Assembly: GCF_002261425.1 (NCBI RefSeq) | Contig: NZ_NEVJ01000002.1 | Span: forward strand, 682,001 to 746,000 | DNA length: 64,000 nt | Direction of reading: 5' to 3' | Origin: Bordetella genomosp. 9 | GTDB lineage: Bacteria; Pseudomonadota; Gammaproteobacteria; Burkholderiales; Burkholderiaceae_B | Part shown: piece after piece, positions 21,096-48,901 of the stretch | How the letters are laid out: each line of letters begins with the position of its first letter | How positions within the stretch are numbered: position 1 is the first letter of the stretch | The notes under the pieces: generated by a model | What the model was told of the DNA's origin: nothing | The model's database searches: none | What the model saw: the letters and a program-made list of their open reading frames with translations, nothing else | Program-made: the position numbers and the translations under genes

Positions 21096-21097
21096 GC

Positions 21098-31959: not shown

Positions 31960-31973
31960 CGCCTGGAGAACGC

Positions 31974-33995: not shown

Positions 33996-34002
33996 GGCGG
34001 CT
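33978..34002 (-). terminator. Intrinsic terminator for the leftward lipoprotein gene
   Basis: On the minus strand AGCCGCCC-TATG-GGGCGGCT followed by six T. An 8-bp perfect stem, 72 bases downstream of the stop at 34,074. It also closes the late operon region from the other side, although without a T-run in that direction. Confidence 0.75.
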
Positions 34003-34073
34003 GTGGTGGCCGGTGCTGATCTCCGGCACAGTGGCGGCTGGTATTACATCCACTCCGCAGAAGCACGACGCAG

Positions 34074-34469
34074 CTATCTCAGCGTTCCACCGAGCTTCAC
34101 GCAATCGATGGTGACGCCTTCGTCTAGGCGGTAGCTGTCTCCGGTGGCCACCGGCCGGGCCCAGGCCAATGCGCCGACGCGGTGCCCGCTCTTCACGTTC
34201 GCCACCACATCGGCGCCCGATCGGCGCGCCTCATCGGCGGCCACCTGCAGAACTTCGGTCGTTCCCCCGTACCAGCGCTTCGAACCGATCAGTTTGCCGA
34301 TCGGCGTCGCCTTGACGTCCGTGGGCAGAGGGGTGGGCAGGAAGCACACAGGGCCACTGTATGGAGGCATCTGGACACTCTCCTTGGTTCGCTTCGTACT
34401 GCTGCGCGCGGCACAGCCGGCGAGCATTGTTGCGATAAGCAAGGCGGTTAGTGCAATGCGATAGGACAC
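34074..34469 (-). CDS. Lipoprotein, hypothetical (phage cargo)
   Basis: A 131-aa protein starting with GTG 34469, preceded by GGGAGA. Signal peptide with lipobox LAGC (Cys19). The mature part includes VCFLPTPLPTDVKATPIGKLIGSKRWYGG and DEARRSGADVVANVKSGHRVG, like small envelope lipoproteins of the YbjP/DUF4156 sort that handle an unknown ligand. Expressed against the late operon, so a probable lysogenic conversion gene. Confidence 0.65.
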   Translation of the reverse strand: MSYRIALTALLIATMLAGCAARSSTKRTKESVQMPPYSGPVCFLPTPLPTDVKATPIGKLIGSKRWYGGTTEVLQVAADEARRSGADVVANVKSGHRVGALAWARPVATGDSYRLDEGVTIDCVKLGGTLR

Positions 34470-34768
34470 GTCGTCTCCCGCTTTGAATATTGGGCGGGAT
34501 GCATTGTATTGCTAAACGTATCCACGTCGGGGCTGCCCTACCGATGCCGGAGTGCGGCGACTGCACCCGGCGGAGGTCAGCCCCTGTGCCTAACGGCCCA
34601 GCGCGCGGGCATTTGAGTCCGTGGCGGCTCGAATTCTTGAAGAAAGAGGGGCGCCCAACGGTCGTGCGGCAACACGACCGGCAAGCGCCAACATGCAGAG
34701 CAAGCTGCAAGCCAGCCGAGGCCCCCCACTCACGCGTGAGCGGGCCGAGGTTAACAGATTGGTTTGCA
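34470..34768. other. Intergenic region between lipoprotein and Dam-type methylase genes
   Basis: 299 bases between divergent genes. A TACAAT that could be a -10 for the leftward gene lies at 34503-34508 (minus strand). The frame of the methylase is open upstream to 34490 but that part is not family-like. Nothing else recognised. Confidence 0.4.
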
Positions 34769-35560
34769 ATGACCCAACCCATCATCCCTTGGATCGGAGG
34801 CAAGCGGCGCTTGGCCGATCGCATCCTCCCGTATTTCCCGGAGCACAGTTGCTACGTCGAACCATTTGCTGGCGGTGCGGCGCTTCTATTTGCTCGCGGC
34901 CTGCCTGCCGAGGTGGAAGTGCTGAACGACATCAACGGCGAGCTCGTCAATCTCTACCGGGTTGTGCAGCATCACTTGGAGGAATTCGTGCGCCAGTTCA
35001 AGTGGGCGCTTTCGTCTCGTCAGGTATTCAAATGGCAGAAGGAGACCCGTCCAGAGACCTTGACCGATATTCAGCGTGCAGCCCGCTTCTACTACCTGCA
35101 GCAGAACGCCTTCGGTGCACGCGTGGAGAGCCAGAGTTTCGGGACTGCAACCACGAGCCCACCGGGACTTAATCTGCTGCGACTTGAAGAGAGTCTGTCC
35201 GCGGCCCATCTGCGGCTCGCGAGCGTCTATATCGAGAACTTGCCATGGTGCGAGTGTGTCGAACGCTACGACCGACCGCACACGCTGTTCTACATGGACC
35301 CTCCGTACTGGAAAACAGAGGGATATGGTGTTGACTTCCCCTTCGAGGAATACGAGCGGATGGCGGCGCTACTTCCTCGATTGAAAGGCAGGGCCGTCAT
35401 CAGCCTAAACGACCATCCTGATATCCGTTCGGTCTTTCGCGATTTTCCAATTGAACGGACCGATCTGCGTTACACGGTTGGCGGAGGTGCCGGCGTGGAG
35501 CGTGGCGAACTCCTCATATTCAGCTGGGATATTGCCTCAGAGCCGGCAAGCCTGCTGTAA
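34769..35560 (+). CDS. DNA N6-adenine methyltransferase (Dam, D12 class)
   Basis: A 263-aa protein from ATG 34769 (MTQPIIPWIGGKRRLADRIL). Motif X-like PWIGGKR, motif I FVEPFAGGAALLFAR-type (VEPFAGGAALLF), catalytic DPPY in FYMDPPYW, and the target-recognition region between. It methylates adenine N6 in a short site, perhaps GATC. Phage copies serve anti-restriction or regulation. Its stop codon directly abuts the hicB stop on the other strand. Confidence 0.85.
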   Translation: MTQPIIPWIGGKRRLADRILPYFPEHSCYVEPFAGGAALLFARGLPAEVEVLNDINGELVNLYRVVQHHLEEFVRQFKWALSSRQVFKWQKETRPETLTDIQRAARFYYLQQNAFGARVESQSFGTATTSPPGLNLLRLEESLSAAHLRLASVYIENLPWCECVERYDRPHTLFYMDPPYWKTEGYGVDFPFEEYERMAALLPRLKGRAVISLNDHPDIRSVFRDFPIERTDLRYTVGGGAGVERGELLIFSWDIASEPASLL

Positions 35561-35977
35561 CTAGGATACCGACAGCTCAAGCTCTTTGCCCATTGTGGCC
35601 AGCGCTTGCGCAATCGTGTCGATCTTCGTGGCGTGCTCCAGGTTTACGATGCGGTTCACTTCCTGGGGCCGGGTACCCATGCGGCGCGCGAGTTCGGCCG
35701 GCGTGACGTGCTGGGCCAGCATTTCGTTGAGCAACAGAACCTTGGCCGAAACGCTGGCCGGTAGCGCCACCAGCACCTCACCGTCCCGAGCCTTGGATGG
35801 CGGAGGTACGGGGCGGCGGTCCTCGAAGTAGAAATCCATGGCTACCAGCAAAGCATCGGCGGCCATTTCGCGTGCTTCTTCCACCGTCTCGCCCGCTGAA
35901 TTGGCTTCCGGTATATCCCGGAACGTAACGAGGTAGCCAACCGTGTCCGGCTCAATCTTGGCTGGATAGCGCAACAT
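35561..35977 (-). CDS. hicB: HicB-family antitoxin
   Basis: A 138-aa protein: N-terminal partial RNase H-like HicB domain (MLRYPAKIEPDTVGYLVTFRD, SAGETVEEAREMAADALLVAM) and a C-terminal XRE-type HTH (HVTPAELARRMGTRPQEVNRIVNLEH). It binds and neutralises HicA and represses the operon through its HTH. It lies 61 bases downstream of hicA. Confidence 0.85.
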   Translation of the reverse strand: MLRYPAKIEPDTVGYLVTFRDIPEANSAGETVEEAREMAADALLVAMDFYFEDRRPVPPPSKARDGEVLVALPASVSAKVLLLNEMLAQHVTPAELARRMGTRPQEVNRIVNLEHATKIDTIAQALATMGKELELSVS

Positions 35978-36038
35978 AATTCTCTCCCTGCATGGGGTGT
36001 GGTGATCGGCGAGCAGGAAGCCCCTTGCGGGGCCTCCC

Positions 36039-36218
36039 TTACTTCTTCAATCCAAGCTGCTTAAGGATCGTTCGCCTCAGCCCTTCGCCTATTTCTTGGC
36101 TACCGTGCCGAGGCAGGGTGGTTTGCTTGCCCTGGAAGTAGACTTTCGTGTGACTTGTGCCTTCTTTGAAAGTCGCCCCCTGGTCCGCGAGCCACCGTCT
36201 GAACTCGCTCTGCTTCAC
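36039..36218 (-). CDS. hicA: HicA-family mRNA interferase toxin
   Basis: A 59-aa protein starting with GTG 36218, preceded by GGGAGG. Core: SEFRRWLADQGATFKEGTSHTKVYFQGKQTTLPRHGSQEIGEGL, a double-stranded RNA-binding-like fold with the catalytic His in GTSHTKVY. It cleaves mRNA when HicB is degraded. As phage cargo it may stabilise the prophage or act in phage defence. Confidence 0.85.
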   Translation of the reverse strand: MKQSEFRRWLADQGATFKEGTSHTKVYFQGKQTTLPRHGSQEIGEGLRRTILKQLGLKK

Positions 36219-36249
36219 CGCACCTCCCTTATCCGTTGAACATGGGAGA

Positions 36250-36278
36250 AGTATAAACAAAAATGTTTATAAGAGCAA
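36250..36278 (-). promoter_or_regulatory. hicAB promoter with embedded palindromic operator
   Basis: Minus strand: -35 TTGCTC (36273-36278), 17-base spacer, -10 TATACT (36250-36255). The palindrome TATAAACA-AAAA-TGTTTATA (36252-36271, perfect 8-bp arms) fills the spacer and overlaps the -10, the expected place for HicB autorepression. Confidence 0.75.
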
Positions 36279-36287
36279 GAGGAATGT

Positions 36288-37277
36288 TCAGGGTCGCCTT
36301 CTGACGCGTTCGCCCGTCACCTTGCGCGCCGGCTTGTCCTCTCGCACGCCCTGGAAGGAAGCCTGCCGCAGGATGCCGCCGTCTGTGATCGTCGTGTATG
36401 CCACCTCCACGACAAGCTCAGGCCGGACCCAGTGCATGGTCGGCTTTGAATTGCCGCCCCAGCGGTCCGACAGCACGGGCTTTTCGATAAACGGCATTTC
36501 CTCGGTAGCCAGGGGCGTCAGGCGCTTCATCAGCATGTCGAGGGTGCTTCCGCTGAACCCAGTGCCTACGCGGCCCGAATAGCGCAGCCTGTCGCCTTCT
36601 CGCAAGCCGACGAGCAGGGCGCCGAAGGCGTTTCGCGATCCGCCTGGGTTGGTCCATCCGCCCACGACGAATTCCTGCCTGGGCCGGCATTTGAGCTTGA
36701 TCCATGTGTCCGTGCGCCCCGCGCGGTAGGGCGCGTTCAGACGCTTGCCGATCAGGCCTTCTAGCTTCCGCTCGCAGGCCTGCGCGAGCAGCAACAGGGC
36801 ATGGTCCCTGGAGTCCACCTCGGCGACCGTGCTGCGCATGATGGCGGCGTTCTCAGGCACCCCCGCCAGGACCGCCTGGAGTGCCTTTGTGCGCTCCACG
36901 AAGGGAAACTCCCGCAGGTCCTTCCCGTTCCAGTACGGGATATCGAATGCCACGTACTGCACCTGCTTGGCGACGCTCTTGTCCATGGCGTTCTGCAGGC
37001 GCTGGAAGCTGCTCACGCCGTGCTCGTCCATCACCACGATCTCGCCGTCGAGCCAGCCGGTACCGGCGATTTTCAGCGCCTCGATGCGCCGCACCAGGTC
37101 GGCGAGCTTCGGCGTCCAGTCCTTCGCCTCGCGGCTGAAGAACCGTACGCCGGACTCATCGATGCGACATAGCATGCGGTAGCCGTCGAACTTCAGCTCG
37201 TAGGCGTAGCCGCTCGGCGGCGGCCCGTCCACGAGCACGGCCAGCGGCGGCTTGATGAAGTCCGGCGGCTCTGGCAT
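36288..37277 (-). CDS. Stand-alone ATP-dependent DNA ligase, LigD ligase-domain type
   Basis: A 329-aa protein with the adenylation motif ELKFDGYR (Lys29 nucleophile), LDGEIVVMD, YVAFDIPYWNGKDLR, EGLIGKRLNAPYRAGRTDTWIKLKC, and an OB-fold domain ending PELVVEVAYTTITDGGILRQASF. LigD of non-homologous end joining normally also has polymerase and phosphoesterase domains; neither is here, and no Ku gene is seen. It seals DNA nicks or breaks. Probably phage cargo. Confidence 0.85.
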   Translation of the reverse strand: MPEPPDFIKPPLAVLVDGPPPSGYAYELKFDGYRMLCRIDESGVRFFSREAKDWTPKLADLVRRIEALKIAGTGWLDGEIVVMDEHGVSSFQRLQNAMDKSVAKQVQYVAFDIPYWNGKDLREFPFVERTKALQAVLAGVPENAAIMRSTVAEVDSRDHALLLLAQACERKLEGLIGKRLNAPYRAGRTDTWIKLKCRPRQEFVVGGWTNPGGSRNAFGALLVGLREGDRLRYSGRVGTGFSGSTLDMLMKRLTPLATEEMPFIEKPVLSDRWGGNSKPTMHWVRPELVVEVAYTTITDGGILRQASFQGVREDKPARKVTGERVRRRP

Positions 37278-37280
37278 GGC

Positions 37281-37459
37281 CTACTTCTTCAGGATCGCGC
37301 GGACCTTGTCCACGGAATTGCTGCCGGCGTCCTTCACGGCCTGGCGCAGCTCGTCAGGCGTGCACCCGAACTCCTTGCTCCAGTACCGTAGCTCCCAGTC
37401 TTCATCCAGTGCGATGCGGGCGCGGTCGCGCGGGCCTCGGTCTTCAGGTCATCAGCCAT
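37281..37459 (-). pseudogene. DUF3606 protein gene, frameshifted
   Basis: The start ATG 37459 with AAGGAG gives MADDLKTE, the usual beginning of DUF3606 proteins. The conserved remainder (RDRARIALDEDWELRYWSKEFG, then TPDELRQAVKDAG) is in another frame ending at TAG 37281. The interval of 179 bases is one base short of a 59-codon frame, so one base has been lost near codons 7-10. Family members are about 60 aa. A real mutation or a sequencing error are both possible. Confidence 0.7.
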
Positions 37460-37541
37460 TGTGTGCTCCTTAGGGTGAGATTCACCGTAGAGCAAGGGAC
37501 ATGCCGCCCCGGCCGCAACGGGAGCAGGAGCGGGCGGGACA

Positions 37542-37790
37542 ATGGATCTGATCACCGAAGTTCTTACAGGCTACAGATTTGTTTTATGCGTGGATGTTGT
37601 ATCGCCGTCGGGGCAGTACGGATGGACTGTAGAGGTGCGGCCGGACTGTCAGCGCCCATACGTCGCCCGAGCATCTGACCAGCTATTCCCTTCTGCCACA
37701 GCGGCAGCGCGCGCCGGCGTGTTCGAACTGAAGGAAGTGATCGCCGCCCATATCGCCGGCGCGCCGCCTATTTCGAAATCTGATCAGTAG
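37542..37790 (+). CDS. Hypothetical protein
   Basis: An 82-aa protein (MDLITEVLTGYRFVLCVDVV) with a beta-rich first half (YGWTVEVRPDCQRPYVARASDQLF) and helical second half (SATAAARAGVFELKEVIAAHIAG). It reads as a small folded protein; its orientation differs from its neighbours. No family recognised. Confidence 0.5.
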   Translation: MDLITEVLTGYRFVLCVDVVSPSGQYGWTVEVRPDCQRPYVARASDQLFPSATAAARAGVFELKEVIAAHIAGAPPISKSDQ

Positions 37791-37815
37791 AGACGCGCCC
37801 GCTTGCGTCGTTCCG

Positions 37816-38121
37816 CTACGCCCAGGTGATCCACCAGCCCTGATAGAAGCGGCGGCCGTCGATCTCTTCATAGCCGCGGACCATCATGCCGCGGTCAGAA
37901 CCGAACGTCAGGAGCTGGGGCTCAAGGAGATCCGGAATACGGGCCGGGCGCGACGCCCCGAACTGCTCGAAGGACGCCACGGTCAGGATTGGCACCGCGC
38001 GCTTAAGGCCTTCGTGGTGGACGGTCTGCATGCGCACCGTACCTTTTATGGGCATGTCGAAGTCCTTGACCTGCAAGGGCTCGCCCATCCGGTGCGTTCG
38101 AATAATGTTGCACGTGAGCAT
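37816..38121 (-). CDS. Conserved hypothetical protein under a LexA-type box
   Basis: A 101-aa protein (MLTCNIIRTHRMGEPLQVKDFDMPIKG). Beta-rich with LTVASFEQFGASRPARIPDLLEPQLLTFG and RRFYQGWWITWA. Homolog-like small proteins occur near SRAP or DNA-repair genes in Burkholderiales prophages as I recall, but no function is known. A perfect CTGT-N8-ACAG box ends 20 bases upstream of its start codon, so SOS induction is predicted. Confidence 0.6.
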   Translation of the reverse strand: MLTCNIIRTHRMGEPLQVKDFDMPIKGTVRMQTVHHEGLKRAVPILTVASFEQFGASRPARIPDLLEPQLLTFGSDRGMMVRGYEEIDGRRFYQGWWITWA

Positions 38122-38140
38122 GGTAGAGCATATCGATGTG

Positions 38141-38156
38141 CTGTATGGATAAACAG
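38141..38156 (-). promoter_or_regulatory. LexA (SOS) box CTGT-N8-ACAG
   Basis: CTGT-ATGGATAA-ACAG, an exact match to the proteobacterial SOS consensus, with the flanking TA on one side as in strong boxes. On the minus strand TATACT directly precedes it and could be the -10. It lies upstream of the gene starting at 38,121. Confidence 0.7.
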
Positions 38157-38165
38157 TATATCGCT

Positions 38166-38381
38166 CTATCCAAGTCCGAATGCAGCCCTGATTTCGTCCC
38201 CTGCGGAACCATCCTCATCCGTATACCGGTCGCCAATCGAGGCACAGTGGCCAACGATGGTCCGGGTGTACTCCAGGAGCTCTGGCGTCATTTCGCCGTC
38301 CGGCGGCAGGACGCCCACGGCGATGGCGACGGTGTGTAGGTCATCCTTGCTCAGCGATCCCGCTTTGCGGCCCATGGTCAT
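38166..38381 (-). CDS. Small hypothetical protein
   Basis: A 71-aa acidic protein (MTMGRKAGSLSKDDLHTVAIAVG) whose start overlaps the SRAP stop (ATGA). Last gene of the leftward cargo operon. No family recognised; the sequence LPPDGEMTPELLEYTRTIVGHC is compact and helical. Confidence 0.5.
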   Translation of the reverse strand: MTMGRKAGSLSKDDLHTVAIAVGVLPPDGEMTPELLEYTRTIVGHCASIGDRYTDEDGSAGDEIRAAFGLG

Positions 38382-39064
38382 TCCTCGTCGGTGGCGACTG
38401 CCGTCTTGACGACCGGTTCGGCCACCAGCTGGTCAGCCGGATAGGGATTCAGGAAATCCATGGTATTCGCAGCGCTGGCCGTCAGCCAGTCGCCGTACGC
38501 ACCATCCGGCAGGATCACGACCATGCGCTTCTCATCGCCTGGCCGGTGGTAATCCTTGAATAGGGGATGGTGATCGGCGTTGATGGTCAGCATCGTGTAG
38601 CTCTCGATCCATTCGCCTGTCGGGGAGCGCCACTTATCCCACAGGCCGGCGATGCCGAGCGGCGCGCCGTCGGCCCTGGTGAACCTGGTCGCGACGGCCC
38701 TGCCGCTGCGCCAGTCCGGCTCAAACACGGCATCGGCCGGGATGATGCAGTGCTGGGCACGACGCCAGGCATTGCCGAACGTGAACGACTTGGCGGCGCT
38801 CTCGGATCTAGCGTTGAAGGTGGACAGCTTCTGCGCCTTGTCGGCGTTGTCCGGTCGCGTCATGGCCGAAATAAGCCCCCAGCGCCCAACCACCGCCTCA
38901 CGCTCCGGCACGGCCTCGTCGCCCGACTCCCATTCAGCCGGCCGGCGCACGAACACGCCCGGGTACTTCGGCCACATGTCCGACTTTGGAATCGGGATGC
39001 CGCGAGCGCGGAAGTAACGCTCCATCTGCTCGGCTTTCTTCAGGGCGGTGTAGTGGGAGCACAT
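38378..39064 (-). CDS. SRAP family protein (HMCES/YedK-like)
   Basis: A 228-aa protein with the catalytic Cys2 in MCSHY (MCGRY in E. coli), the active-site NARSE in TFNARSESAAKSF, RAQHCIIPADAVFEP, and a late His region (DYHRPGDEKRMVVIL). SRAP proteins form a covalent thiazolidine link to abasic sites in single-stranded DNA and shield them. Phage-borne copies could protect phage DNA during replication. Starts on the base after the stop of the upstream membrane-protein gene. Confidence 0.85.
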   Translation of the reverse strand: MCSHYTALKKAEQMERYFRARGIPIPKSDMWPKYPGVFVRRPAEWESGDEAVPEREAVVGRWGLISAMTRPDNADKAQKLSTFNARSESAAKSFTFGNAWRRAQHCIIPADAVFEPDWRSGRAVATRFTRADGAPLGIAGLWDKWRSPTGEWIESYTMLTINADHHPLFKDYHRPGDEKRMVVILPDGAYGDWLTASAANTMDFLNPYPADQLVAEPVVKTAVATDEE

Positions 39065-39637
39065 CTAAACGGCGTCGCCGCTATAACCGGCAAGGTGCTT
39101 GTCATGACGGTTGATGGGGCGTGTCTCGGCATCAACCCGCATCTTTGCTAAGTACGTCCGCCGAACTCGCTCGGCCGCTTGGGCTTCAGAAAGCGCGTCT
39201 CTGCTCCGCTCTATCGACAGGAGAGCAAAGCAAGACTGCACAAGTCCCCCAACCCAGAATCCAATGGATCCCAGTATCAGGTAGGCTAGCCAGCCACCTG
39301 TATATGCTTGCCCTGCTGGCAGCTTGACGAACTCGTTTGCAAGGAGCGTTCCAACGCCAACGACCGCATTGAGTGCAATGGAGACGACGATTTGAATCTT
39401 GTAGCGGTGGGTTCTTCTTTGGACCGTGGTTCGCTGCTCGCTGCGAAGATCGTCAAGTTTTTCTAAGGATCCCATCCGACTGTAAGCCGTGGCCCACAGC
39501 ACAGTGAGAAGCGTCCCAGCGGCGCCTAAAGCCGTAGACGGCACCGCTCCCGACGCCAAGTCGCATACGACCGCGGGGAGCCATTTATTTAGCCCCAAAC
39601 CTGCGACCAAAGCAATGAGTACGCCGAGCAGTCTCAT
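39065..39637 (-). CDS. Four-helix membrane protein of unknown function
   Basis: A 190-aa protein with four predicted membrane segments (about 3-20, 34-53, 82-105 and 113-141), a charged loop (SLEKLDDLRSEQRTTVQRRTHRYK) between pairs and a charged cytoplasmic tail. It lies 3 bases after the 344-aa gene and directly before the SRAP gene, so the three are one operon. Two-gene sets of a small four-helix membrane protein and a soluble partner occur in phage-defence systems such as Kiwa; I cannot show homology. Confidence 0.65.
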   Translation of the reverse strand: MRLLGVLIALVAGLGLNKWLPAVVCDLASGAVPSTALGAAGTLLTVLWATAYSRMGSLEKLDDLRSEQRTTVQRRTHRYKIQIVVSIALNAVVGVGTLLANEFVKLPAGQAYTGGWLAYLILGSIGFWVGGLVQSCFALLSIERSRDALSEAQAAERVRRTYLAKMRVDAETRPINRHDKHLAGYSGDAV

Positions 39638-39640
39638 GCA

Positions 39641-40675
39641 TTAAACGTCGACGTTGATTTGGCCACTATGAATGAGTGACTCGAGCCATTTCGCCATTTC
39701 TTCATATGCTTCAGTTTGAACAAGTTGCCCATCGAAGCTCCCAATCGACTTACGATCGTGGATATAGAAATCCTCGTTGCGCAGTGTGCCGACGCCCTTG
39801 AGGTTAGCCCTGAATCGGACGCCGTCGGCGCCTTGTAGAGCGCCCATCAGCGATTTCATTACCTTGTCGTTGGTGGTTCCGGCTGGCGCGCGACCTCGCA
39901 CGGTGACTTCTATCTTAACGCCGATGTCTGGAACTTCTTCAAGTTCTTCGCCGGTGATCGGTTTGTAGGACGTGCCGCCCAGGAGTCCCTTCATCGCTTC
40001 CCAGCCCCTGCCGACCGCCTGCAGCGCCTTGGAGCTAGTGTCCTCAGTACCGTCCGGCAGCTCAATGGCTGAGACCATTTGAGTCTCTAGCTTCATGCTT
40101 TTGATGGGCGCTTGGCGCAATTTCGCTTTGATCGATTCGCTGATCTCATCCGTAAGGAAAACCGCTTGCTTATCGTCTATCTGTCTGGCTTCTCTAAGCA
40201 ACCACTGGAGGTGATCCTGTAGGTGTCTTGCCCGGAGCGACATCGACTGGATGACAACGACGTGGTTATCCCTGACTGCGAAGTGCAGCAGGGTGTCCAA
40301 AAAATGCTTGCCATCTGGCGGCGCGTGCTTCGCGACGTCGAGCTCTGCCAGGTGTTCCCCCGGTTTCATATCTCGCTTCACTGCATCAATCACTAAGTGG
40401 TGATCCCCTGGCGTGAAAAGCACGAGAACGCCAAACTGGAATCCGCGAAAATCTCTAGGTGAATTTAATAGCCTGACGAAACGTTGAACCACCGTCGGCA
40501 TGTTGTCGGAGCCCAATCCGACGTCGTTGACCTCCTCATGACGCTGCGTTACATCGAGCTTAGCCAGGGCCGCTTTCAGCATGTCCTGAAGCGTCAGGGG
40601 AGTCGGATTTAGGAACGTTGCTTTTTTGTAATGCAGCTCTTTCTGCACCAGCTTCCGTCGCGAAATATTTGGCAT
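39641..40675 (-). CDS. Unknown 344-aa cytoplasmic protein, first gene of the cargo operon
   Basis: No signal or membrane segment. N-terminal part (MPNISRRKLVQKELHYKKATF) is basic. The middle is alpha/beta (FGVLVLFTPGDHHLVIDAVKRD, DNHVVVIQSMSLRARHLQDHL). The C-terminal part (VKIEVTVRGRAPAGTTNDKVMKSLMG) is followed by FYIHDRKSIG. No nuclease, ATPase or NAD-consuming motif stands out. AT-content is higher than in the flanking chromosome, consistent with recent acquisition. Candidate effector or sensor of an undescribed module with the membrane protein. Confidence 0.6.
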   Translation of the reverse strand: MPNISRRKLVQKELHYKKATFLNPTPLTLQDMLKAALAKLDVTQRHEEVNDVGLGSDNMPTVVQRFVRLLNSPRDFRGFQFGVLVLFTPGDHHLVIDAVKRDMKPGEHLAELDVAKHAPPDGKHFLDTLLHFAVRDNHVVVIQSMSLRARHLQDHLQWLLREARQIDDKQAVFLTDEISESIKAKLRQAPIKSMKLETQMVSAIELPDGTEDTSSKALQAVGRGWEAMKGLLGGTSYKPITGEELEEVPDIGVKIEVTVRGRAPAGTTNDKVMKSLMGALQGADGVRFRANLKGVGTLRNEDFYIHDRKSIGSFDGQLVQTEAYEEMAKWLESLIHSGQINVDV

Positions 40676-40887
40676 CGGTGTCTCGGTAGAAAATTCCGCG
40701 ACACCTTACCAGATGTAAATACAACGAAATAGTGGGACGGATGACGCGTGTCTAAAACTGGTACGCCCATTTAGCATAATCAGGGGGTTAGCGCTGCCAT
40801 TACCTGACATAGCATTGGACAGTCCGATGGAAATGTCTCAATGTTTTCAATACCTTAACCGATGTTTAAAATCTTCTGACCGAGTAC
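40676..40887. other. Prophage right terminal region and probable attR
   Basis: An AT-rich non-coding stretch typical of phage ends, finishing at about 40,880, where pilin coding sequence begins (CTGACCGAGTACGTGATCG). The attachment core should be shared with the sequence left of int, outside this window. Confidence 0.6.
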
Positions 40888-41106
40888 GTGATCGTCGTCG
40901 CGCTGGTCGCGGTGGCGGCCATCGCGGTGTATCAACTGTTCGGCCAGGTCGTACGTTCGCAGACCGCCGCCATGGCGCGCGAGCTCGCCGGCGAAAGCGG
41001 CGCCGAACAATCCCGCGCGGCGCAGACGGCGGCGGGCAAGGCGGCCGCGCAGGCCAAGGCGAAATCATTGAAGTCGTTCACCGGCAATGCCGGCGCGGCG
41101 CAATGA
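40888..41106 (+). pseudogene. Flp/TadE-like pilin gene truncated at its 5' end by the prophage
   Basis: The reading frame that ends at TGA 41106 encodes LTEYVIVVALVAVAAIAVYQ and a polar tail (ELAGESGAEQSRAAQTAAGKAAAQ). This is the body of a Tad-locus pilin-like protein beginning at the conserved Thr-Glu-Tyr after the prepilin peptidase site (normally G-x-x-x-x-E-Y). The Gly, leader peptide and start codon are missing; a TAA lies 4 codons upstream of the Leu codon. GTG 40888 could start an unprocessed remnant. The 5' part is expected at attL outside the window. The stop overlaps the next start by 4 bases. Confidence 0.75.
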
Positions 41107-42539
41107 ACATGCGGCGGCACTCGTGCGGCCAGGCCTTGCCGCTGGCCCTGGGGCTGGCGGGCTTGGGCGCATTGTCCCTGGTCGTGCTCTACAACCTGGG
41201 GCAGACCGTCGCGGCGCGCGCCCGGCTCACGCACGCGGCGGACGCCGCGGCCTACAGCGGGGCGCTGGTGCAGGCGCGCGCCTTGAACATGATCGCCTAC
41301 ATCAACCGGGCGCAGGTCGCGCATCAGGTCGCGATGGCGCATCTCGTGACGCTGGCGACATGGACGCGCTTCGGGCACGCGGAAGGACAACGCGTGCTGC
41401 GCGGCAATCCACCCGCCGCCGTGATCGGGATGCTGTTCGGTCCCGCGCATGGCCAGGCCTACGCCAGCGCCGCCGTCGCGGCGAATGCCGGCGGCCTGGA
41501 GGCACAATTCGGCCGCGCCTATGAACGCCACGATGCGACCGTGCATCGCGTATTGGCCGCGGCGATGCGTGAGACGCTGGCGCGCTTGCCGGACACGCGC
41601 ATGCAGGCCATGCGTGCGGTGGTGCGGGCCAACTATCCGGAATTCCAGGCGCCCGTGTACGACGCGATCGCCTCGTCCGCGAACGGGTCGGACGGGGCGC
41701 GGGATCGCCTCGGCCTGCAGGTGCGAGCCGATGATTGGCCCGGTTTCGTGCGGCGATATGCGGGCCAGGATCGCGGCGCGCTTCGCGCCACGGTGCTGGA
41801 GGCGAGCGGGCGCTACGGTTTCCTGGGACCTCGCAACCGCGACGCGCGCAACAGCTGGCCGGTGAGCTTTCGTTGTCCGACGTGGCGGCATGAACTGCGG
41901 CGACGCGGCGGTACGCGCCTGGGCGGCGATGGGCGGTGGCGGTCCATCGATACGCAGTCTTTTCACAAGGTGCGCTCCAACAAGTACATCGGCTGCTATT
42001 ACAGGGAGTACGCCATGGGCTGGGGCAAGGCCAATGCGCGCGGCGCCGGCGGTCGCGCGGCGGGAGATGGCGGGCCGGATGCACCGGACGTGCCGGAGGA
42101 TTTTTCACGGCAGGACTTCTGGCGATGGGTGCGTCAGCATACGTCCTGGGACATCGTCAATGGCGTGTCGAATCCGCTCGCCTATGCCTATGCCATGCGC
42201 GATGCCAAGCGCTGGTCGGGCGCCGGGTTGCCGCCGTATGCCGAGGTCCCGCTGAGCCGGTCGGGGAAGGGCACGCGTTTCGTCCTGGCGCTGCGGCAGC
42301 CGGCGCCTTTACTGGCGACGACCGATGCGGGCAGCACGGTGGCGTCACCGACGGGACGCCTGGCGTATGCCGGCCTGACGCGCGAAGACGACGTCACCGT
42401 CCTGAGCGCGGCCGAAACCTATTTCGCGCGACCGCACGCACGCCGCGATGGCGCCGATGAACTGGCGACGCTGTTCCGGCCGTACTGGCAGGCGCGACTA
42501 ACCGGGACTGCGCAACAGGCGGGACGACATGGCGAATAA
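41103..42539 (+). CDS. TadG/TadE-like Flp pilus assembly protein
   Basis: A 478-aa protein from ATG 41103. N-terminal SCGQALPLALGLAGLGALSLVVL is a prepilin-like hydrophobic segment. THAADAAAYSGALVQARALNMIAYINRAQVAHQVAMAHLVTLATW is typical of large Tad-locus minor-pilin-like proteins. The remainder is periplasmic or extracellular with few Cys. It probably takes part in pilus assembly or cell-envelope anchoring. Confidence 0.7.
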   Translation: MNMRRHSCGQALPLALGLAGLGALSLVVLYNLGQTVAARARLTHAADAAAYSGALVQARALNMIAYINRAQVAHQVAMAHLVTLATWTRFGHAEGQRVLRGNPPAAVIGMLFGPAHGQAYASAAVAANAGGLEAQFGRAYERHDATVHRVLAAAMRETLARLPDTRMQAMRAVVRANYPEFQAPVYDAIASSANGSDGARDRLGLQVRADDWPGFVRRYAGQDRGALRATVLEASGRYGFLGPRNRDARNSWPVSFRCPTWRHELRRRGGTRLGGDGRWRSIDTQSFHKVRSNKYIGCYYREYAMGWGKANARGAGGRAAGDGGPDAPDVPEDFSRQDFWRWVRQHTSWDIVNGVSNPLAYAYAMRDAKRWSGAGLPPYAEVPLSRSGKGTRFVLALRQPAPLLATTDAGSTVASPTGRLAYAGLTREDDVTVLSAAETYFARPHARRDGADELATLFRPYWQARLTGTAQQAGRHGE

Positions 42540-43158
42540 GGTGCAGAAGGGCCAGGCGTTGGTGGAAGCGCTCGTCGGCGCGGCGCTGCTGGGCCTGCTG
42601 GCAACGGCCGTCGTCAGCGTCGCGCGCTTCCAGTGGCAAGGCTTGCGGGCGTCCCACGCCGCGCGTGCGCAGGCGTTCCGTTACGCCGCCGGCGATCGTG
42701 CAGGCCACGAGTTCGCCCACGTGCGGGTGACGCGCGCCGCGCACGCCGCGGATTTCGCCGGACCCGGCGGTCCACGGGCCGCCGCCTTGCGGCGCGAACT
42801 TCAGGTGGAAGACCAGGGTATGGTGCGCGCGCACGCCGCGGTGGACGTGTACCCGCATCGCCATCACGGTGCGGGGTTGGTCCTGCGTCGTCACGTCGCG
42901 ATACTCGCCGACGCGGGGCATGCGACCGGCGATGACGCGGCCCAGCGGCGCATCGCGGCGTCTCATGCGGCCTGGGCGACGGCCGCCGGGTTCAGCCACG
43001 CGCCGGCGCGGCAGGCGCAGGCAGTGTTGAAGCGCATCGATGCCGGATGGCGCCGCCCGCCGCCGGATCTGGACTGGCTCGCGCCTTGGTCGGACGTGGT
43101 GCCCGCGGATCGACTGGATCGAACCAGGGCTGGCGGTTCGGCGAGCAGGCGTCCATGA
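42529..43158 (+). CDS. TadE-like pseudopilin
   Basis: A 209-aa protein (MANKVQKGQALVEALVGAALLGLLA) with a prepilin-type site (KGQALVE) followed by a membrane helix. The rest is an Ala/His/Arg-rich globular domain. Overlaps the previous gene by 11 bases. Processed by a TadV/CpaA-type peptidase that is not in this window. Confidence 0.65.
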   Translation: MANKVQKGQALVEALVGAALLGLLATAVVSVARFQWQGLRASHAARAQAFRYAAGDRAGHEFAHVRVTRAAHAADFAGPGGPRAAALRRELQVEDQGMVRAHAAVDVYPHRHHGAGLVLRRHVAILADAGHATGDDAAQRRIAASHAAWATAAGFSHAPARQAQAVLKRIDAGWRRPPPDLDWLAPWSDVVPADRLDRTRAGGSASRRP

Positions 43159-43943
43159 TGCCCCGCCTGCCGCCCGATCGTCCGCCTTTGCTGCCGCGAT
43201 CCGCGATCGTGGGCCTGTTGGCCGGCGCGGGCGTGCTGCCGTGGCCGTATTCCCCGCACACCGCGCATGCCGCGCCTGCCACGCATGCCATGCATGCCAT
43301 GGCCGGCGCCGCCCGATGGCAGGCCGCGCACCTGCCGATGGCGCCGCCGGCGCTGCCGCCGGGCAGCCGCTTCATCCCCCTCGTCGATGGGATGTCCATC
43401 CAGGGACTGTCCCTGTCCGCCTATGTCTTCGAGGCGCCCATGCCGCCCGCCGATCTGGCCGCATGGCTGACCGCCAGGCAACCGGCATTGCGGGACCTGT
43501 GGATCATGCCGGATGCCGTTGTCCTGGCCGGTATCGCCGACGGCCTGCATTGGGTCGCCCGCATGTCCGATGCCGGCGCGGGTCGCACGCGCGGCACGAT
43601 TTCCGCGCTGCCGACGGAGCGGCATGTCGCATCGCCTGATCCGTCGGGCCGCGGCGATCCGGTCCAGGCCGTTCCCTGGCAATTGCCAGGTGGCCGTTTG
43701 CTGTTCGAACTGCGGTCGCGGGACGATGACGCCATGGTCGTCCAGCAGGTGTGGACCCATGGCAGCGCACCGCTGCCTTTGGGGGAAAAGCTCGCGCGCG
43801 AGCTCGCGCGAGAAGGGTGGACGGCGGCGGGCGGCGACGCGGCACGGCAACGATGGACGCGCGGCCGCGTCACGCTGCTCGTCACCATAGTTCCCCTGGA
43901 CCCGGGCAGCGGTGTCAATGCCGTCGTCCGCATCGGAGCATAA
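43155..43943 (+). CDS. Tad-locus exported protein, unassigned
   Basis: A 262-aa protein starting ATG 43155 (or 43158). N-terminal basic stretch and hydrophobic helix (SAIVGLLAGAGVLPWPY) act as signal. A short His/Ala/Met-rich repeat follows (TAHAAPATHAMHAMAG). Middle domain FIPLVDGMSIQGLSLSAYVFEAPMPP may be folded. Located between TadE-like and CpaB genes, so likely pilus assembly; no family recognised. Confidence 0.5.
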   Translation: MMPRLPPDRPPLLPRSAIVGLLAGAGVLPWPYSPHTAHAAPATHAMHAMAGAARWQAAHLPMAPPALPPGSRFIPLVDGMSIQGLSLSAYVFEAPMPPADLAAWLTARQPALRDLWIMPDAVVLAGIADGLHWVARMSDAGAGRTRGTISALPTERHVASPDPSGRGDPVQAVPWQLPGGRLLFELRSRDDDAMVVQQVWTHGSAPLPLGEKLARELAREGWTAAGGDAARQRWTRGRVTLLVTIVPLDPGSGVNAVVRIGA

Positions 43944-43949
43944 GGCAAC

Positions 43950-44879
43950 ATGCTGGACCGGATTCCTCAGCGCTGGTTGATGGCGGCCGTCACGATCGCG
44001 GCGGGCCTGCTCGCGGCCTGGGCCGCACGGCAACACATACAAGGCCGCATCGAACAGATCGAGGCCGACGCCAAGGTGGCCACCGTTCCCCGCCTGGTGG
44101 CGGCCTATGACCTGACGCCAGGCACCCGCTTGGAAGAAGCCTACGTGGCCGTGCGCGATATTCCCACTGCATGGGCGCCCAGCGATGCGCTCGCGCCGGA
44201 GGATTTCGCTTCATATACCTACAGCGTGCTGGCGCATCCGCTGCGGCGGGGCGATCCGGTCCAGCGCTCGCATCTGGCGCCGCGCAAGGCCGCGCCCCTG
44301 TCGTCGCGCGTGTCGTCGGGCCGTCGCGCCATCACGATTCCAGTGGACGACATCAACTCCTTGTCCGGCATGTTGCAGGCCGGCGACCTGCTGGATCTTT
44401 ACGTGTCCTTCGAACATGGCCGCCGGCAGATCACGGCGCCCCTGCTGCAGGGCGTGCTGGTGCTGGCGACGGGCCGGGCCGGCGACGATGACGAAGCGAT
44501 GGCCGGCGCGTTCTCCACCATCACGCTGGACGCCGGTCCCGAAGACGCGGTCAAGCTGGTCGCCGCCCGGCAGGCCGGGCGCATCACCGCCATTCTGCGT
44601 CACCACCGGGACGCGGACACCAACGCCACGGCGGCGCGTGGCGATCTGGCGGCCCTGCTCGGCATGGACGACGCCGACGATGCGCGCCCGCGCCCGGTCC
44701 CCGTACTGTATGGCGACCGCCCGGACGGCAATGCGAGCAAACCGTCCGACGACGAAATCGGCGGCGCGTCCGGCTCCGCATGGTTCGATGCCGACGTTCC
44801 CGCCGAGGTCGTCAGTGCGGGCCGCACCCGTCCGGCGCCTTCCCACATTTCCCGCGGCGCCAGGAATCAAGGACGGTAG
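43950..44879 (+). CDS. cpaB: Flp pilus assembly protein CpaB (RcpC)
   Basis: A 309-aa protein with an N-terminal membrane anchor, then an SAF domain (VVAAYDLTPGTRLEEAYVAVRDIP in the region 49-72) and the CpaB core (GRRAITIPVDDINSLSGMLQAGDLLDL). It is a periplasmic component that works with the secretin. It is followed at once by the secretin gene. Confidence 0.85.
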   Translation: MLDRIPQRWLMAAVTIAAGLLAAWAARQHIQGRIEQIEADAKVATVPRLVAAYDLTPGTRLEEAYVAVRDIPTAWAPSDALAPEDFASYTYSVLAHPLRRGDPVQRSHLAPRKAAPLSSRVSSGRRAITIPVDDINSLSGMLQAGDLLDLYVSFEHGRRQITAPLLQGVLVLATGRAGDDDEAMAGAFSTITLDAGPEDAVKLVAARQAGRITAILRHHRDADTNATAARGDLAALLGMDDADDARPRPVPVLYGDRPDGNASKPSDDEIGGASGSAWFDADVPAEVVSAGRTRPAPSHISRGARNQGR

Positions 44880-44884
44880 TGATC

Positions 44885-46324
44885 GTGGAAATGTACAGAC
44901 GTCATCGTCGTGGCGCGGGTGTTCCGATACGCCGGCCGGCCGCGCTGCATTGCATGCTGACGCTATTGCTGATCGCTTCCCTGTGGGCATCGGCACGCGC
45001 GTCCACCGTGCTGGATATGCAGGTTGGAGAAACGCGCGTGCTGGCCCATCCCGGCGTCAGCCGGGTCGCGGTGGGACACGGCGAAATACTGCAAGCGGTT
45101 CCGGCCGACACGGCGGAGGTCATCGTATTCGCACGCGCGGAAGGCGAGTCCTCGCTGCACATCTGGGCCGGCAGGAAGCGCAGCGCCTACACCGTGCGTG
45201 TCGCGCCCGCGCGATCGCGCAGCATGCGCGCCGAAGTCGATGCGCTGCTGGCCCGCATTCCGGGCGCGCGTGGCGAAGCGATAGGCGACCAGATCGTGAT
45301 CGAAGGCCATGACCTGTCCGATGCGGATCATGCGCGTATCGCGGCCCTGGCGGAACGCTATCCCCAGGTGATCGACTTCACCGGCAAGGTCGGCTGGGAC
45401 CGCATGGTCCTGCTCGACGTCAAGGTGGTGGAACTGCCGCGCTCGCGCCTGACCGAACTCGGTGTGCGGTGGGACGGCACGACGCAGGGCGGCCTGATGG
45501 CGGGATGGGCGCTGGACGCGGCGGCGTCCAGCCGGTTGGGCGAACGCCCGGGGGTATCGCCCCTGCCGGCCGCCTTGCGCGCCGCGCCCGGCGCCGGCTA
45601 TGCCGGCATGAACATGCTGCTTTCCTCGCGCCTGAACCTGTTGGCGGAAAGCGGCGAAGCCATCGTGCTGGCCCAACCGCAATTGCTTGCGCGCAGCGGT
45701 TCCACCGCCGAATTCCTGGCGGGCGGCGAGGTGCCCTATGCAACGGTGGACAAGGATGGGAATGCATCCACGCTGTTCAAGCCTTATGGGGTGTCCCTGC
45801 GCATCACGCCCACCATCGCATCCAGCGGTACGGTGCGTTCCCGTATCGAAGTGGAAGCCAGCGCGGTGGATGCTTCCGTGACCGCCACGGGCGGGCCGGC
45901 GCTGAAGACGCGGCGAGCCTCCACCGAGTTCAACGTCCGATCAGGCCGTACGCTGGTGATCGGCGGCTTTCTTTCGCGCGAACGGCATACCCAGGAAAGC
46001 GGCCTGCCCGGTCTGCGCAATATCCCCTTGCTGGGATGGCTGTTCGGGGCGCGTCGCGAACAGTTCAAGGAAACGGAGCTGGCCATCTTCGTCACGCCCG
46101 TGGTGGTGACCGAGGACCATGGCGCCATGCGCCACGCCACGGCGCAGGCCGGCGAGCGCCTGCGCAATGCATTTCCCGAACCGCCACGGATGCTGATGGC
46201 GGAGCCGGCGGGCGCCCCCGCCGTGTCCGGCGACGGCGGCTGGGATCCTTACCGCGGTCCCGGCTCGCAATGGGCGGAGCCGCACCCGCGCAAGGGCGCC
46301 AACCAATATGACTTCAAGGATTGA
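44885..46324 (+). CDS. cpaC: Type II/IV secretin CpaC (RcpA) of the Tad pilus
   Basis: A 479-aa protein; GTG 44885 chosen for its 7-base spacing to AAGGACGG, with ATG 44891 as alternative. Signal peptide, N-domain (LDMQVGETRVLAHPGVSRVAVG), BON-like part (DADHARIAALAERYPQVIDF), and the secretin core ending GLPGLRNIPLLGWLFGAR and ELAIFVTPVVV. It forms the outer-membrane channel for the Flp pilus. Confidence 0.85.
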   Translation: MEMYRRHRRGAGVPIRRPAALHCMLTLLLIASLWASARASTVLDMQVGETRVLAHPGVSRVAVGHGEILQAVPADTAEVIVFARAEGESSLHIWAGRKRSAYTVRVAPARSRSMRAEVDALLARIPGARGEAIGDQIVIEGHDLSDADHARIAALAERYPQVIDFTGKVGWDRMVLLDVKVVELPRSRLTELGVRWDGTTQGGLMAGWALDAAASSRLGERPGVSPLPAALRAAPGAGYAGMNMLLSSRLNLLAESGEAIVLAQPQLLARSGSTAEFLAGGEVPYATVDKDGNASTLFKPYGVSLRITPTIASSGTVRSRIEVEASAVDASVTATGGPALKTRRASTEFNVRSGRTLVIGGFLSRERHTQESGLPGLRNIPLLGWLFGARREQFKETELAIFVTPVVVTEDHGAMRHATAQAGERLRNAFPEPPRMLMAEPAGAPAVSGDGGWDPYRGPGSQWAEPHPRKGANQYDFKD

Positions 46325-46327
46325 ATC

Positions 46328-48043
46328 GTGCTGGAAATCGAACTGCAATTCGAGGATGGCACGCACCGGATCGTGCGTGTGCAGCCTCCCGTCGTGCTGG
46401 GGCGGGCGCCTCACTGCGGGATACGCATACGGCATTGGCGCGTGGGCCGCGAACATGCGCGCTTCGTCGTCTCCGGACAGGACGTGGTGATCGAGGATGC
46501 CGGTACGCTGTCGGGCACCCTGGTCAACGGCAAGCGCATCGCCCGGTACGGACCCTTGACGTCGAATGACGAGGTGCTGGTCGGCCCTTGCCTGATGAAA
46601 GTGCGCCGCGAACCGTTCCTGCCCATCACGGCGCGCGCGCTACCGGCAGCGGCGGACGTCATGCCTCTGTCCGAATCCACCTTGCGCGACGTCGCCGCCG
46701 ACCGGCACGCCTATGGCCTGGAGGCGGACGCGAGGGACATTGGCGAGATGAGCGACATGAGCGACATGAGCGACATGAACCCCGCCGTCGACCTGCTTCC
46801 GCATCGGCAGCGCTTGCAGTCCGCATTGCTCGACGCGCTGGATCTGCGGCGCCGCGACGTCGCGAAGATGAGCGATAGCCTGTTGCGTAGTGAAGCCGCC
46901 GAAAGGCTGTTGGCCCTCGTTCGCGAGGACACCCAGATTCCCGCCGGTGTCGACCCGGACGCGCTGATGCGCGAGGTCCTGGACGAAGCGCTGGGGTTCG
47001 GTCCGCTGTCGCCTTTGCTGGAGGATCCCGGCGTCACGGAAATCATGGTCAACCGCCATGACCAAATCTACGTGGAGCGTGATGGCCGCCTGGTCCGCCA
47101 CGCGGCGGCATTCAGCAGCGAACAGGCCGTATTGCGGGTGTTGGAGCGCATCGTGGCGCCGATAGGGCGGCGCATCGACGAAAGCTCGCCCATGGTGGAT
47201 GCCCGTCTTGCCGACGGGTCCCGCGTGAATGCGGTGGTCGCGCCCGTGGCGCTGAAGGGCGCCACGCTGACCATACGCAAGTTTCCGCAGCGGGCGCTCG
47301 GCATGCCAGACCTGGTGCGCCGCGGTTCCCTGGACACGGCCATGGCGGACTTCCTGGCGCGTTGCGTCGCCGAGCGCGTCAACATCGTTGTGTCCGGCGG
47401 CACCGGATCCGGCAAGACCACGCTGCTGAACATCCTGTCCAATGCCATCCCGGGCGGCGAACGCATCATCACCATCGAGGACGCCGCGGAGCTCCGCCTG
47501 CGCCACGCGCACGTTGTCGCCCTGGAGGCCAGGCCCGCCAATATGGAGGGCCGCGGCCACATCACCATACGCGACCTGGTCCGCAATGCCCTGCGCATGC
47601 GGCCCGACCGCATCGTCGTGGGCGAATGCCGCGGCGCGGAGGCCTTCGACATGCTGGCGGCCATGAACACCGGCCATGAAGGTTCGCTGACCACGCTGCA
47701 CGCCAACAGCCCGCGCGATGCGCTGGGCCGCCTGGAGACGATGATCCTGATGGCGGGCATGGACCTGCCGCTGGCGGCGGTGCGCGAACACATCGCGTCC
47801 AGCATTCACTTGATCGTGCAGCAGGCCCGTATGCCCGACGGCCGGCGCCTGGTGACGGCGATCGTCGAAGTGACGGGCATGGAGGCCGGCCGTATCCAGA
47901 CCCAGCCGCTGTTCATGCACGAAGGCGGCGGGGCGCGGGGCGGATTCGCCGGTTGCGGCACCATGCCCACCTTCGCCGACGCATGGCGCGACGCCGGCCG
48001 GCCGCTCGATCCCATGTTGTTCACGGGGACGGTCGCGCCATGA
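46328..48043 (+). CDS. cpaF: FHA-CpaF fusion: Tad pilus assembly ATPase with N-terminal FHA domain
   Basis: A 571-aa protein. Residues ~1-95 form an FHA domain (LGRAPHCGIRIRHWRVGREHARF, LVNGKR); the usual Ser of the phosphothreonine pocket is Gly40. A linker follows with MSDMSDMSDM (141-150). The CpaF ATPase runs from ~155: DPGVTEIMVN, Walker A GGTGSGKT (357-364), Walker B-region RIVVGECRGAEAFDMLAAMNTGHEGSLTTLHAN. It powers pilus extension. FHA fused to CpaF is unusual; it may bring in phospho-signal control or replace TadZ targeting. Confidence 0.85.
   Translation: MLEIELQFEDGTHRIVRVQPPVVLGRAPHCGIRIRHWRVGREHARFVVSGQDVVIEDAGTLSGTLVNGKRIARYGPLTSNDEVLVGPCLMKVRREPFLPITARALPAAADVMPLSESTLRDVAADRHAYGLEADARDIGEMSDMSDMSDMNPAVDLLPHRQRLQSALLDALDLRRRDVAKMSDSLLRSEAAERLLALVREDTQIPAGVDPDALMREVLDEALGFGPLSPLLEDPGVTEIMVNRHDQIYVERDGRLVRHAAAFSSEQAVLRVLERIVAPIGRRIDESSPMVDARLADGSRVNAVVAPVALKGATLTIRKFPQRALGMPDLVRRGSLDTAMADFLARCVAERVNIVVSGGTGSGKTTLLNILSNAIPGGERIITIEDAAELRLRHAHVVALEARPANMEGRGHITIRDLVRNALRMRPDRIVVGECRGAEAFDMLAAMNTGHEGSLTTLHANSPRDALGRLETMILMAGMDLPLAAVREHIASSIHLIVQQARMPDGRRLVTAIVEVTGMEAGRIQTQPLFMHEGGGARGGFAGCGTMPTFADAWRDAGRPLDPMLFTGTVAP
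46748..46777 (+). repeat. 9-bp tandem repeat ATGAGCGAC in the FHA-CpaF linker
   Basis: Three perfect units (46748-46774) plus a partial ATG, encoding Met-Ser-Asp repeats. Units are in frame, so gain or loss would change linker length without a frameshift. Confidence 0.8.
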
Positions 48044-48885: not shown

Positions 48886-48901
48886 ACAGGGCGGCAAGGC
48901 A

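What the first reader, a model, noticed from the sequence alone, without database searches (positions are those of the whole stretch)
40676..41106. Prophage integrated into a Tad-locus pilin gene, removing its leader and cleavage site
Pilin coding sequence begins abruptly at LTEYVIVVALVA, the part just after the prepilin cleavage Gly. Upstream the frame is AT-rich and closed by TAA. The integrase at the left edge and the phage gene order support an attachment site here. This is the first pilin-like gene of the local Tad cluster, so lysogeny would stop its processing and separate the operon from its promoter. Excision could switch the pilus back on (phage-controlled switch). That last step is inference.
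Basis: partly seen in the sequence, partly recalled or inferred. Interest (0 to 1): 0.75.

Follow-up and report, generated by a model that had tools for sequence, protein, structure and literature searches.

The report
Prophage splitting the Tad pilin gene
A virus sitting in this bacterium's chromosome has cut the gene for its surface-pilus subunit in two, at the place where a known Bordetella phage inserts, and the same cut recurs in related bacteria, made by viruses that have little more in common with this one than the insertion enzyme.

Summary
Window 40,877-40,887 (TGACCGAGTAC) is the right attachment site (attR) of a prophage inserted in a Tad-cluster pilin gene. Of 28 readable related loci, 26 read unbroken across this site; the two split ones carry a related integrase. 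The missing left half lies outside the window, but the closest integrase relatives (86-91% identical) carry a pilin leader beside the integrase, as do 13 of 15 genomes with a close integrase. In 12 of those 15 the pilin is cut at the same codon; judged by alignment start, 0 of 140 listed integrase-negative genomes are. The phage end has the arm layout of phage PHB09, whose insertion in a Bordetella bronchiseptica pilin gene is published (PMC7010805). So this is a new member of a known kind. What seems new is breadth: one integrase/attP module, on phages sharing little else with this one, hits the pilin across a bacterial family. The 'phage-controlled switch' is not shown; PHB09 induction always lysed its host.

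The parts
3..563 (-). tyrosine integrase, N-terminal 189 of about 324 residues; the rest and attL lie left of the window
   Evidence: phrog_1 integrase E 3.7e-18; 90% identical over 189 residues to the L033 integrase, next to L033 in the tree
564..40876 (.). prophage body: HTH regulator (10319-11059 -), terminase large subunit (14516-16348 +), portal (16543-17889 +), tape measure (23636-29452 +), methyltransferases, ligase, phrog_3482 gene (39641-40675 -)
40749..40758 (+). integrase arm-type site TGTCTAAAAC, 127 bases before the core codon
   Evidence: same offset (+-1) in relatives and in PHB09 attP
40778..40790 (+). IHF-like site AATCAGGGGGTTA, offset -98 (IHF consensus recalled)
   Evidence: offset -98/-99 in 12 of 12 attR with enough sequence, window included, and in PHB09; the arm + IHF-like pair occurs once in 127,880 window positions, both strands
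40815..40821 (+). second arm-like site TTGGACA, offset -61
   Evidence: TTAGACA or TTTTAGAC at -61/-63 in most relatives
40845..40857 (+). second IHF-like site TTTCAATACCTTA, offset -31, one mismatch
40877..40887 (+). attR core TGACCGAGTAC
   Evidence: equals the first 11 of 14 bases of the published PHB09 site TGACCGAGTACATC; attL and attR of one genome share 13 bases here in G041, 10 in G005, and 10 of 11 in G004
40876..41106 (+). 3' part of the Tad-cluster pilin gene, 76 codons plus stop, without leader
41103..49777 (+). downstream Tad cluster: TadE/G-like (41103-42539), N_methyl-type pseudopilin (42529-43158), RcpC/CpaB (43950-44879), secretin (44780-46324), TadA-like ATPase with FHA (46328-48043), two T2SSF (47953-48885, 48878-49777)
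   Evidence: TadE/G and N_methyl below their Pfam cut-offs, TadA below its NCBIfam cut-off

Best explanation
40,676-41,106 is the right attachment site (attR) of a temperate, siphovirus-like prophage. A PHB09-type tyrosine integrase recombined the phage attP with an attB lying in the coding sequence of the pilin that opens a Tad cluster, at the codons of MTEY. The pilin is split: its leader, prepilin cleavage Gly and first mature residues stay at the far (integrase) end, and its remaining 76 codons stay here without a start signal. Shown: the split, the conserved arm / IHF-like / core layout, the recurrence with this integrase clade, and a single close pilin gene in each relative searched. Inferred: that the window's own attL holds the pilin leader; that no mature pilin is made in the lysogen; that the cluster is cut off from its own promoter; that Tad pili are lost while the prophage stays (negative lysogenic conversion); and that excision would rejoin the gene but normally goes with lytic growth.
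For: 26 of 28 related loci unbroken; the 2 split ones carry an integrase 64% and 66% identical to L033's, while 5 unsplit genomes tested have only distant recombinases. IMG/VR integrase relatives at 65-91% identity: 8 of 15 carry a pilin leader ending GQGMTEY 65-98 bases from the integrase stop, 1 is an attP-like form, 6 hold no sequence past the integrase. Family survey: 18 of 268 genomes have the integrase at E<=1e-60, 15 at 55-72% and 3 at 42-44% identity. Pilin cut at the same codon in 12 of the 15 and 0 of the 3. Pilin leader beside the integrase in 13 of the 15. Of 150 listed pilin matches (of 228 genomes), the 6 that begin at query residue 3 or later are all integrase-positive; 0 of 140 integrase-negative ones do so (Fisher p 1.5e-8, ignoring kinship). 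7 genomes have integrase and cut pilin 37-56 kb apart on one contig. None of 12 cut pilins nor the window has Gly at the cleavage position; 6 of 6 intact ones do. PHB09 insertion in a pilin gene was shown by PCR and sequencing (PMC7010805, passages).
Against: The window's own attL cannot be read (window edge; no genome held). 3 of the 15 close-integrase genomes have an intact pilin: G011 has no pilin fragment beside its integrase, and G117 and G233 have pilin fragments at attL plus a slightly different intact copy on another contig, probably mixed strains. G114 has a cut pilin but an unclear attL (L130). The pilin does not pass Pfam's Flp_Fap cut-off (15.4 of 32.2 bits at best). Loss of pili was not measured here.
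Confidence: 0.95

Rival explanations
1. Phage-controlled switch (active lysogeny): the prophage excises without lysis under some condition, rejoins the pilin gene and turns the Tad pilus on, as reported for a S. aureus Sa3 phage in hlb.
For: Attachment architecture conserved; downstream Tad genes recognisable and long; 18 of 18 pilin matches have no internal stop, so the split genes have not visibly decayed. Precedent: PMC6597384 (abstract and section headings).
Against: For PHB09, induction always led to lysis and the authors saw little chance of reversion (PMC7010805, passages; repeated in the review PMC9955262, passages). Lack of decay fits recent insertion equally well. No excised form of this strain seen.
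Confidence: 0.12
2. The site is chosen because losing the pilus helps the prophage: the Tad pilus is a receptor for competing phages, or surface attachment is costly for the lysogen, so splitting the pilin blocks superinfection or changes lifestyle.
For: The same codon is hit in 12 surveyed genomes and in the window; seven of those prophages share little with the window's beyond the integrase, one of them (G193) more. Tad pili serve phage adsorption in Caulobacter (PMC11067988, start of abstract in a search listing).
Against: No data on receptors of these phages. A conserved, single-copy DNA target is sufficient reason for the site.
Confidence: 0.2
3. Neutral landing pad: the integrase keeps this site because the codons for the prepilin motif are conserved, single-copy DNA in these bacteria; pilus loss is a tolerated side effect.
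For: Core falls on the conserved MTEY codons; pilin matched in 228 of 268 genomes, one match each in the rows shown; only about 5% of pilin-bearing genomes (12 of 228) are known to be split.
Against: Many phage integrases use tRNA genes or gene ends so that the gene is restored (recalled); here the start is not restored in any of 13 attR examined, window included.
Confidence: 0.6
4. The pilin start is a decayed or assembly-joined fragment unrelated to site-specific integration.
For: The window alone lacks attL.
Against: Fixed-spacing arm / IHF-like / core layout and recurrence at the same codon with a matching integrase.
Confidence: 0.02

Closest known systems
Bordetella phage vB_BbrS_PHB09 (MN103401; Chen et al. 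2020, PMC7010805; abstract and passages read)
   Same: Temperate siphovirus; related integrase (63.6% to the L033 integrase, itself 90% to the window's); [quoted passage not shown] the window core equals the first 11 of 14 bases of TGACCGAGTACATC; arm at -127, IHF-like site at -98 and a second arm at -63 (window -61).
   Different: Other strain and other phage; the main text has no whole-word Tad, Flp, prepilin or Achromobacter and treats one phage.
S. aureus Sa3int phages in hlb (PMC6597384, abstract and section headings)
   Same: Prophage splits a host gene (negative conversion); excision can rejoin it.
   Different: There active excision was reported; here it is not shown, and PHB09 lyses its host on induction.
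Listeria comK prophage / active lysogeny (recalled; listing of titles and abstract starts only)
   Same: Insertion in the coding part of a host gene.
   Different: Regulated, non-lytic excision is the defining step and is untested here.

Membership tests
PHB09-type pilin-integrating temperate phages | Tyrosine integrase of the PHB09 clade | tested here: met
   Window integrase lies in a 31-row group (support 100/100) with PHB09 (L174); nearest rows L033 and L032
PHB09-type pilin-integrating temperate phages | Insertion in the pilin gene at TGACCGAGTAC(ATC) | tested here: met
   Window 40,877-40,887 TGACCGAGTAC, then GTG instead of ATC
PHB09-type pilin-integrating temperate phages | attP arm layout | tested here: met
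   Arm at -127 and IHF-like site at -98 as in PHB09; second arm at -61 (PHB09: -63)
PHB09-type pilin-integrating temperate phages | Direct repeat of the core at both ends with pilin 5' part at the integrase end | not testable with these tools
   attL lies left of the window and no genome is held; present in relatives
Tad (Flp) pilin | Prepilin motif G|x4EY with basic leader, followed by a hydrophobic segment (motif recalled) | tested here: met
   e.g. R.RQLG|QGMTEYIVVVALVAVAAIAVY in relatives; the window holds only the 3' part
Tad (Flp) pilin | Gene stands first in a Tad cluster | tested here: met
   Window downstream genes; upstream in the one genome looked at (L005): MFS efflux gene, IS110 transposase, rpoD-like sigma factor, no Tad gene among the three ORFs scanned
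Tad (Flp) pilin | Match to Pfam PF04964 Flp_Fap above its cut-off | tested here: not met
   15.4 bits against 32.2 for L020; none listed for L005 or the window fragment; so called a Tad-cluster pilin, not a Pfam Flp_Fap member
Active lysogeny / phage regulatory switch | Insertion disrupts a host gene | tested here: met
Active lysogeny / phage regulatory switch | Regulated excision without lysis that restores the gene | not testable with these tools
   No reads or cultures; the PHB09 report speaks against it

The most novel reading that the evidence does not exclude
One integrase/attP module has spread among phages with little else in common across a bacterial family because splitting the only close Tad pilin gene benefits the prophage (blocking pilus-dependent rival phages or surface commitment), and rare non-lytic excision keeps the split gene usable, making the Tad pilus a phage-held trait.
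Probability: 0.2. Interest if true: 0.75.

Novelty: new member of a known kind. Interest (0 to 1): 0.5.

Why it matters
It turns one published case (PHB09 in B. bronchiseptica) into a recurrent pattern: about 5% of the pilin-bearing genomes sampled in the family, one per species (12 of 228), have their one detected Tad-cluster pilin gene split by prophages of one integrase clade, although the seven prophages compared mostly differ widely from the window's. It predicts Tad-negative lysogens in Achromobacter-like bacteria, warns that genomes read as having a defective pilin may just be lysogens, and makes testable whether phages gain from removing a host pilus.

Tried and rejected
Own genome search: none held. 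The phrog_3482 end gene gave no confirmed IMG/VR relative. A near-identity DNA search of the first 25 kb of the window matched only methylase stretches in 7 phage records; 25,001-40,876 was not searched that way. The pilin gives no match in the phage collection. One search looked for the integrase stop from the wrong place for L032-L047; its rows for those loci are void and were redone. For L048-L105 (58 loci, integrases 27-47% identical) one search found no Gxxx[TSA]EY-type motif after the integrase, but several have under 100 bases there. A promoter reading from the phage end into the Tad genes: one weak site (40,844-40,872), 1 found against 0.5 +- 0.7 in shuffles, and it overlaps the IHF-like site: not accepted. 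Restored leader from phage DNA: rejected, no Gly at the cleavage position in 13 of 13 (12 genomes plus window). Second pilin copy as rescue: one match per genome in the rows shown at E<=1e-10, with at most 21 candidates scored per genome. Wider spread: 1 of 399 genomes of the order, at 43% identity (a sample); genus of G002, 0 of 6 (no positive control). (genus of G003, 5 of 43 at E<=1e-40) is contained in the family survey. L150 was missed by the pattern and read; L129 and L134 were missed and read. L134 was too short for the tree. The IHF consensus and prepilin numbering are recalled.

Full report
Observation. The pilin frame LTEYVIVVALVAVAAIAVYQLFGQVV opens at 40,876 and runs to 41,106; upstream the frame reads TAA AAT CTT before CTG. 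The 200 bases before it have 44% G+C against 69% in the pilin part. The integrase is on the minus strand at the left edge (563 down to 3) and is cut by the window edge after 189 of about 324 residues. Between them lie phage genes: HTH regulator, terminase, portal, tape measure, DNA methyltransferases, ligase, SRAP. To the right lies a Tad cluster: TadE/G-like, RcpC, secretin, TadA-like ATPase, two T2SSF. The TadE/G match is borderline (22.0 bits against a cut-off of 22.3) and the TadA model is below its cut-off (341 against 373).

What the site looks like without the phage. The adjacent Tad protein found 31 loci in Achromobacter and Bordetella genomes. In 28 the pilin could be read; 26 read unbroken across the site, typically R.RQLGQGMTEYIVVVALVA (one of them, L030, is frameshifted farther downstream), and 2 (L004, Achromobacter marplatensis B2; L026, A. 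ruhlandii LMG 1866) break at the same codon as the window. Seven of these genomes were searched with the integrase of L033: only those two have a close one (64% and 66%), the other five only distant recombinases. In both, the pilin leader stands beside the integrase.

The missing half. Relatives answer it. Of 15 IMG/VR integrases at 65-91% identity, 8 have a pilin leader ending GQGMTEY on the opposite strand 65-98 bases beyond the integrase stop, among them the three closest to the window's (L032, L033, L034); L043 has instead a phage sequence ending DSLTEY, read here as an attP; 5 records stop at the integrase stop and 1 inside it. Some of these records may be the same strains as genomes below (L046 and L108 have identical integrases).

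Survey. In 268 genomes of the family that holds G003 (the genome of L005, A. kerstersii), 18 have the integrase at E<=1e-60: 15 at 55-72% identity and 3 at 42-44%. The pilin was found once in each of the 18. It is cut at the core in 12 of the 15 (G004, G005, G041, G104, G106, G108, G114, G129, G175, G178, G183, G193) and in 0 of the 3 distant ones. The three exceptions: G011, whose integrase has no pilin fragment beside it, and G117 and G233, which have a pilin fragment beside the integrase plus a slightly different intact copy on another contig, most simply two strains in one assembly. A pilin leader adjoins the integrase in 13 of 15 (L107, L108, L117, L124-L129, L131-L134); L130 is unclear and L118 negative. 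In seven genomes integrase and cut pilin share a contig, 37-56 kb apart. Family-wide, 228 of 268 genomes have the pilin at E<=1e-10, one match each in the rows shown; 150 matches are listed with coordinates (counted by hand from the listing; 78 are not listed). Judged by where the alignment begins, six begin at query residue 3 or later, all integrase-positive; 2 begin at residue 2 and 142 at residue 1; none of the 140 integrase-negative ones is cut. Fisher p is 1.5e-8, without correction for kinship.

Attachment site. With the core codon as 0, the window has TGTCTAAAAC at -127, an IHF-like AATCAGGGGGTTA at -98, TTGGACA at -61 and TTTCAATACCTTA at -31. The IHF-like site at -98/-99 is present in 12 of 12 attR with enough sequence, window included; the -127/-128 arm in 11 of 12 by the pattern used, the twelfth (G129) having a variant; G178 is cut too short. 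None of 6 intact control loci matched any of these patterns. An IHF-like site between -75 and -15 (at most one mismatch; all at -31) was in 7 of 11 attR, against a mean of 0.8 and a maximum of 4 in 300 shuffles. The arm + IHF-like pair occurs once in 127,880 window positions on both strands. PHB09's record, which begins at the core, has the same arm at -127, an IHF-like site at -98 and TTTTAGAC at -63. Within one genome attL and attR share TGACGGAATACAT (13 bases) in G041, TGACGGAATA (10) in G005, and 10 of 11 bases in G004; the window's core is TGACCGAGTAC.

One module, many phages. A tree of 51 integrases (the distant group thinned to every fourth row) puts the 23 rows labelled as pilin-site, the window and L130 among them, on one side of a branch with support 100/100, together with seven of unknown site and one not at the pilin, L118. 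Of 20 window prophage ORFs with any match in seven fetched prophages, only the integrase matches all seven; G041, G104 and G129 share just one further ORF with the window, G108 three, G175 four, G106 five and G193 eleven (the seven were compared with the window, not with each other). So the integrase/attP module has moved between phages that otherwise differ.

Consequence. None of 13 attR (12 genomes plus window) supplies a Gly at the cleavage position, while 6 of 6 intact ones have it. With no second close pilin gene seen in relatives, loss of Tad pili in the lysogen is likely but inferred. In L005 the ORFs scanned upstream of the pilin are an MFS efflux gene, an IS110 transposase and an rpoD-like sigma factor, so the pilin seems to open the cluster and the prophage separates the rest from that upstream region. 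Whether the phage end transcribes the Tad genes is unknown (one search gives no significant promoter).

Known work. Chen et al. 2020 (PMC7010805; abstract and passages) showed that PHB09 integrates in a pilin gene of B. bronchiseptica at TGACCGAGTACATC in all 13 natural lysogens and in 40 laboratory-picked ones (the latter 'data not shown'), with reduced virulence in mice; they could not knock out the pilin gene to prove the cause; induction always lysed the cells. The main text has no occurrence of Tad, Flp, prepilin or Achromobacter as whole words. Searches for prophage + flp pilin + attB (1 paper), for three of prophage, tad locus, Achromobacter, integration site (24 papers, 20 listed), and for prophage + integration site + pilin gene + lysogen (5 papers; PHB09 and its review PMC9955262 among them) showed no family-wide account in the listings; that is no proof that none exists. 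Reversible switching is reported for a Sa3 phage in hlb (PMC6597384, abstract and headings), not here.

Verdict. A real attR in a Tad-cluster pilin gene: a new member of the PHB09 kind, with a wider pattern around it. The switch remains a hypothesis, with evidence from PHB09 against it.

Noticed in passing
L118 (G011), bases after the integrase stop: An integrase of the pilin clade (59% identical) sits at another place whose sequence has a core-like ATGACTGATAC, while the pilin of that genome is intact: a possible secondary or shifted attachment site.
   Followed up: partly
L126/L145 (G233) and L131/L147 (G117): Assemblies holding both a pilin fragment beside the integrase and a slightly different intact pilin on another contig, probably mixed strains.
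   Followed up: partly
L130 (G114): The host side of this attL looks unlike a pilin leader except for RQAM before the core; a transposon may have inserted nearby (impression from the translation only).
   Followed up: no
PMC12482185 (passages): Vibrio harveyi prophages phi354 and phiGAN1709 are said to encode an Flp pilin; this might be a host pilin fragment at a prophage border.
   Followed up: no
window 2113-4026 and 34490-35560: The prophage carries a large C5 cytosine methyltransferase and a D12-class N6-adenine methyltransferase, as well as an ATP-dependent DNA ligase (36288-37277), an SRAP protein (38378-39064) and a protein with a ParB HTH domain (6081-6917).
   Followed up: no
MN103401.1 77-1208 (L174): PHB09's annotated integrase starts later than its relatives do; the tblastn match (record 86-1051) runs on into the neighbouring hypothetical ORF.
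   Followed up: no
L030, pilin gene: Pilin of this Achromobacter xylosoxidans assembly reads intact across the attB site but appears frameshifted near its 3' end.
   Followed up: no
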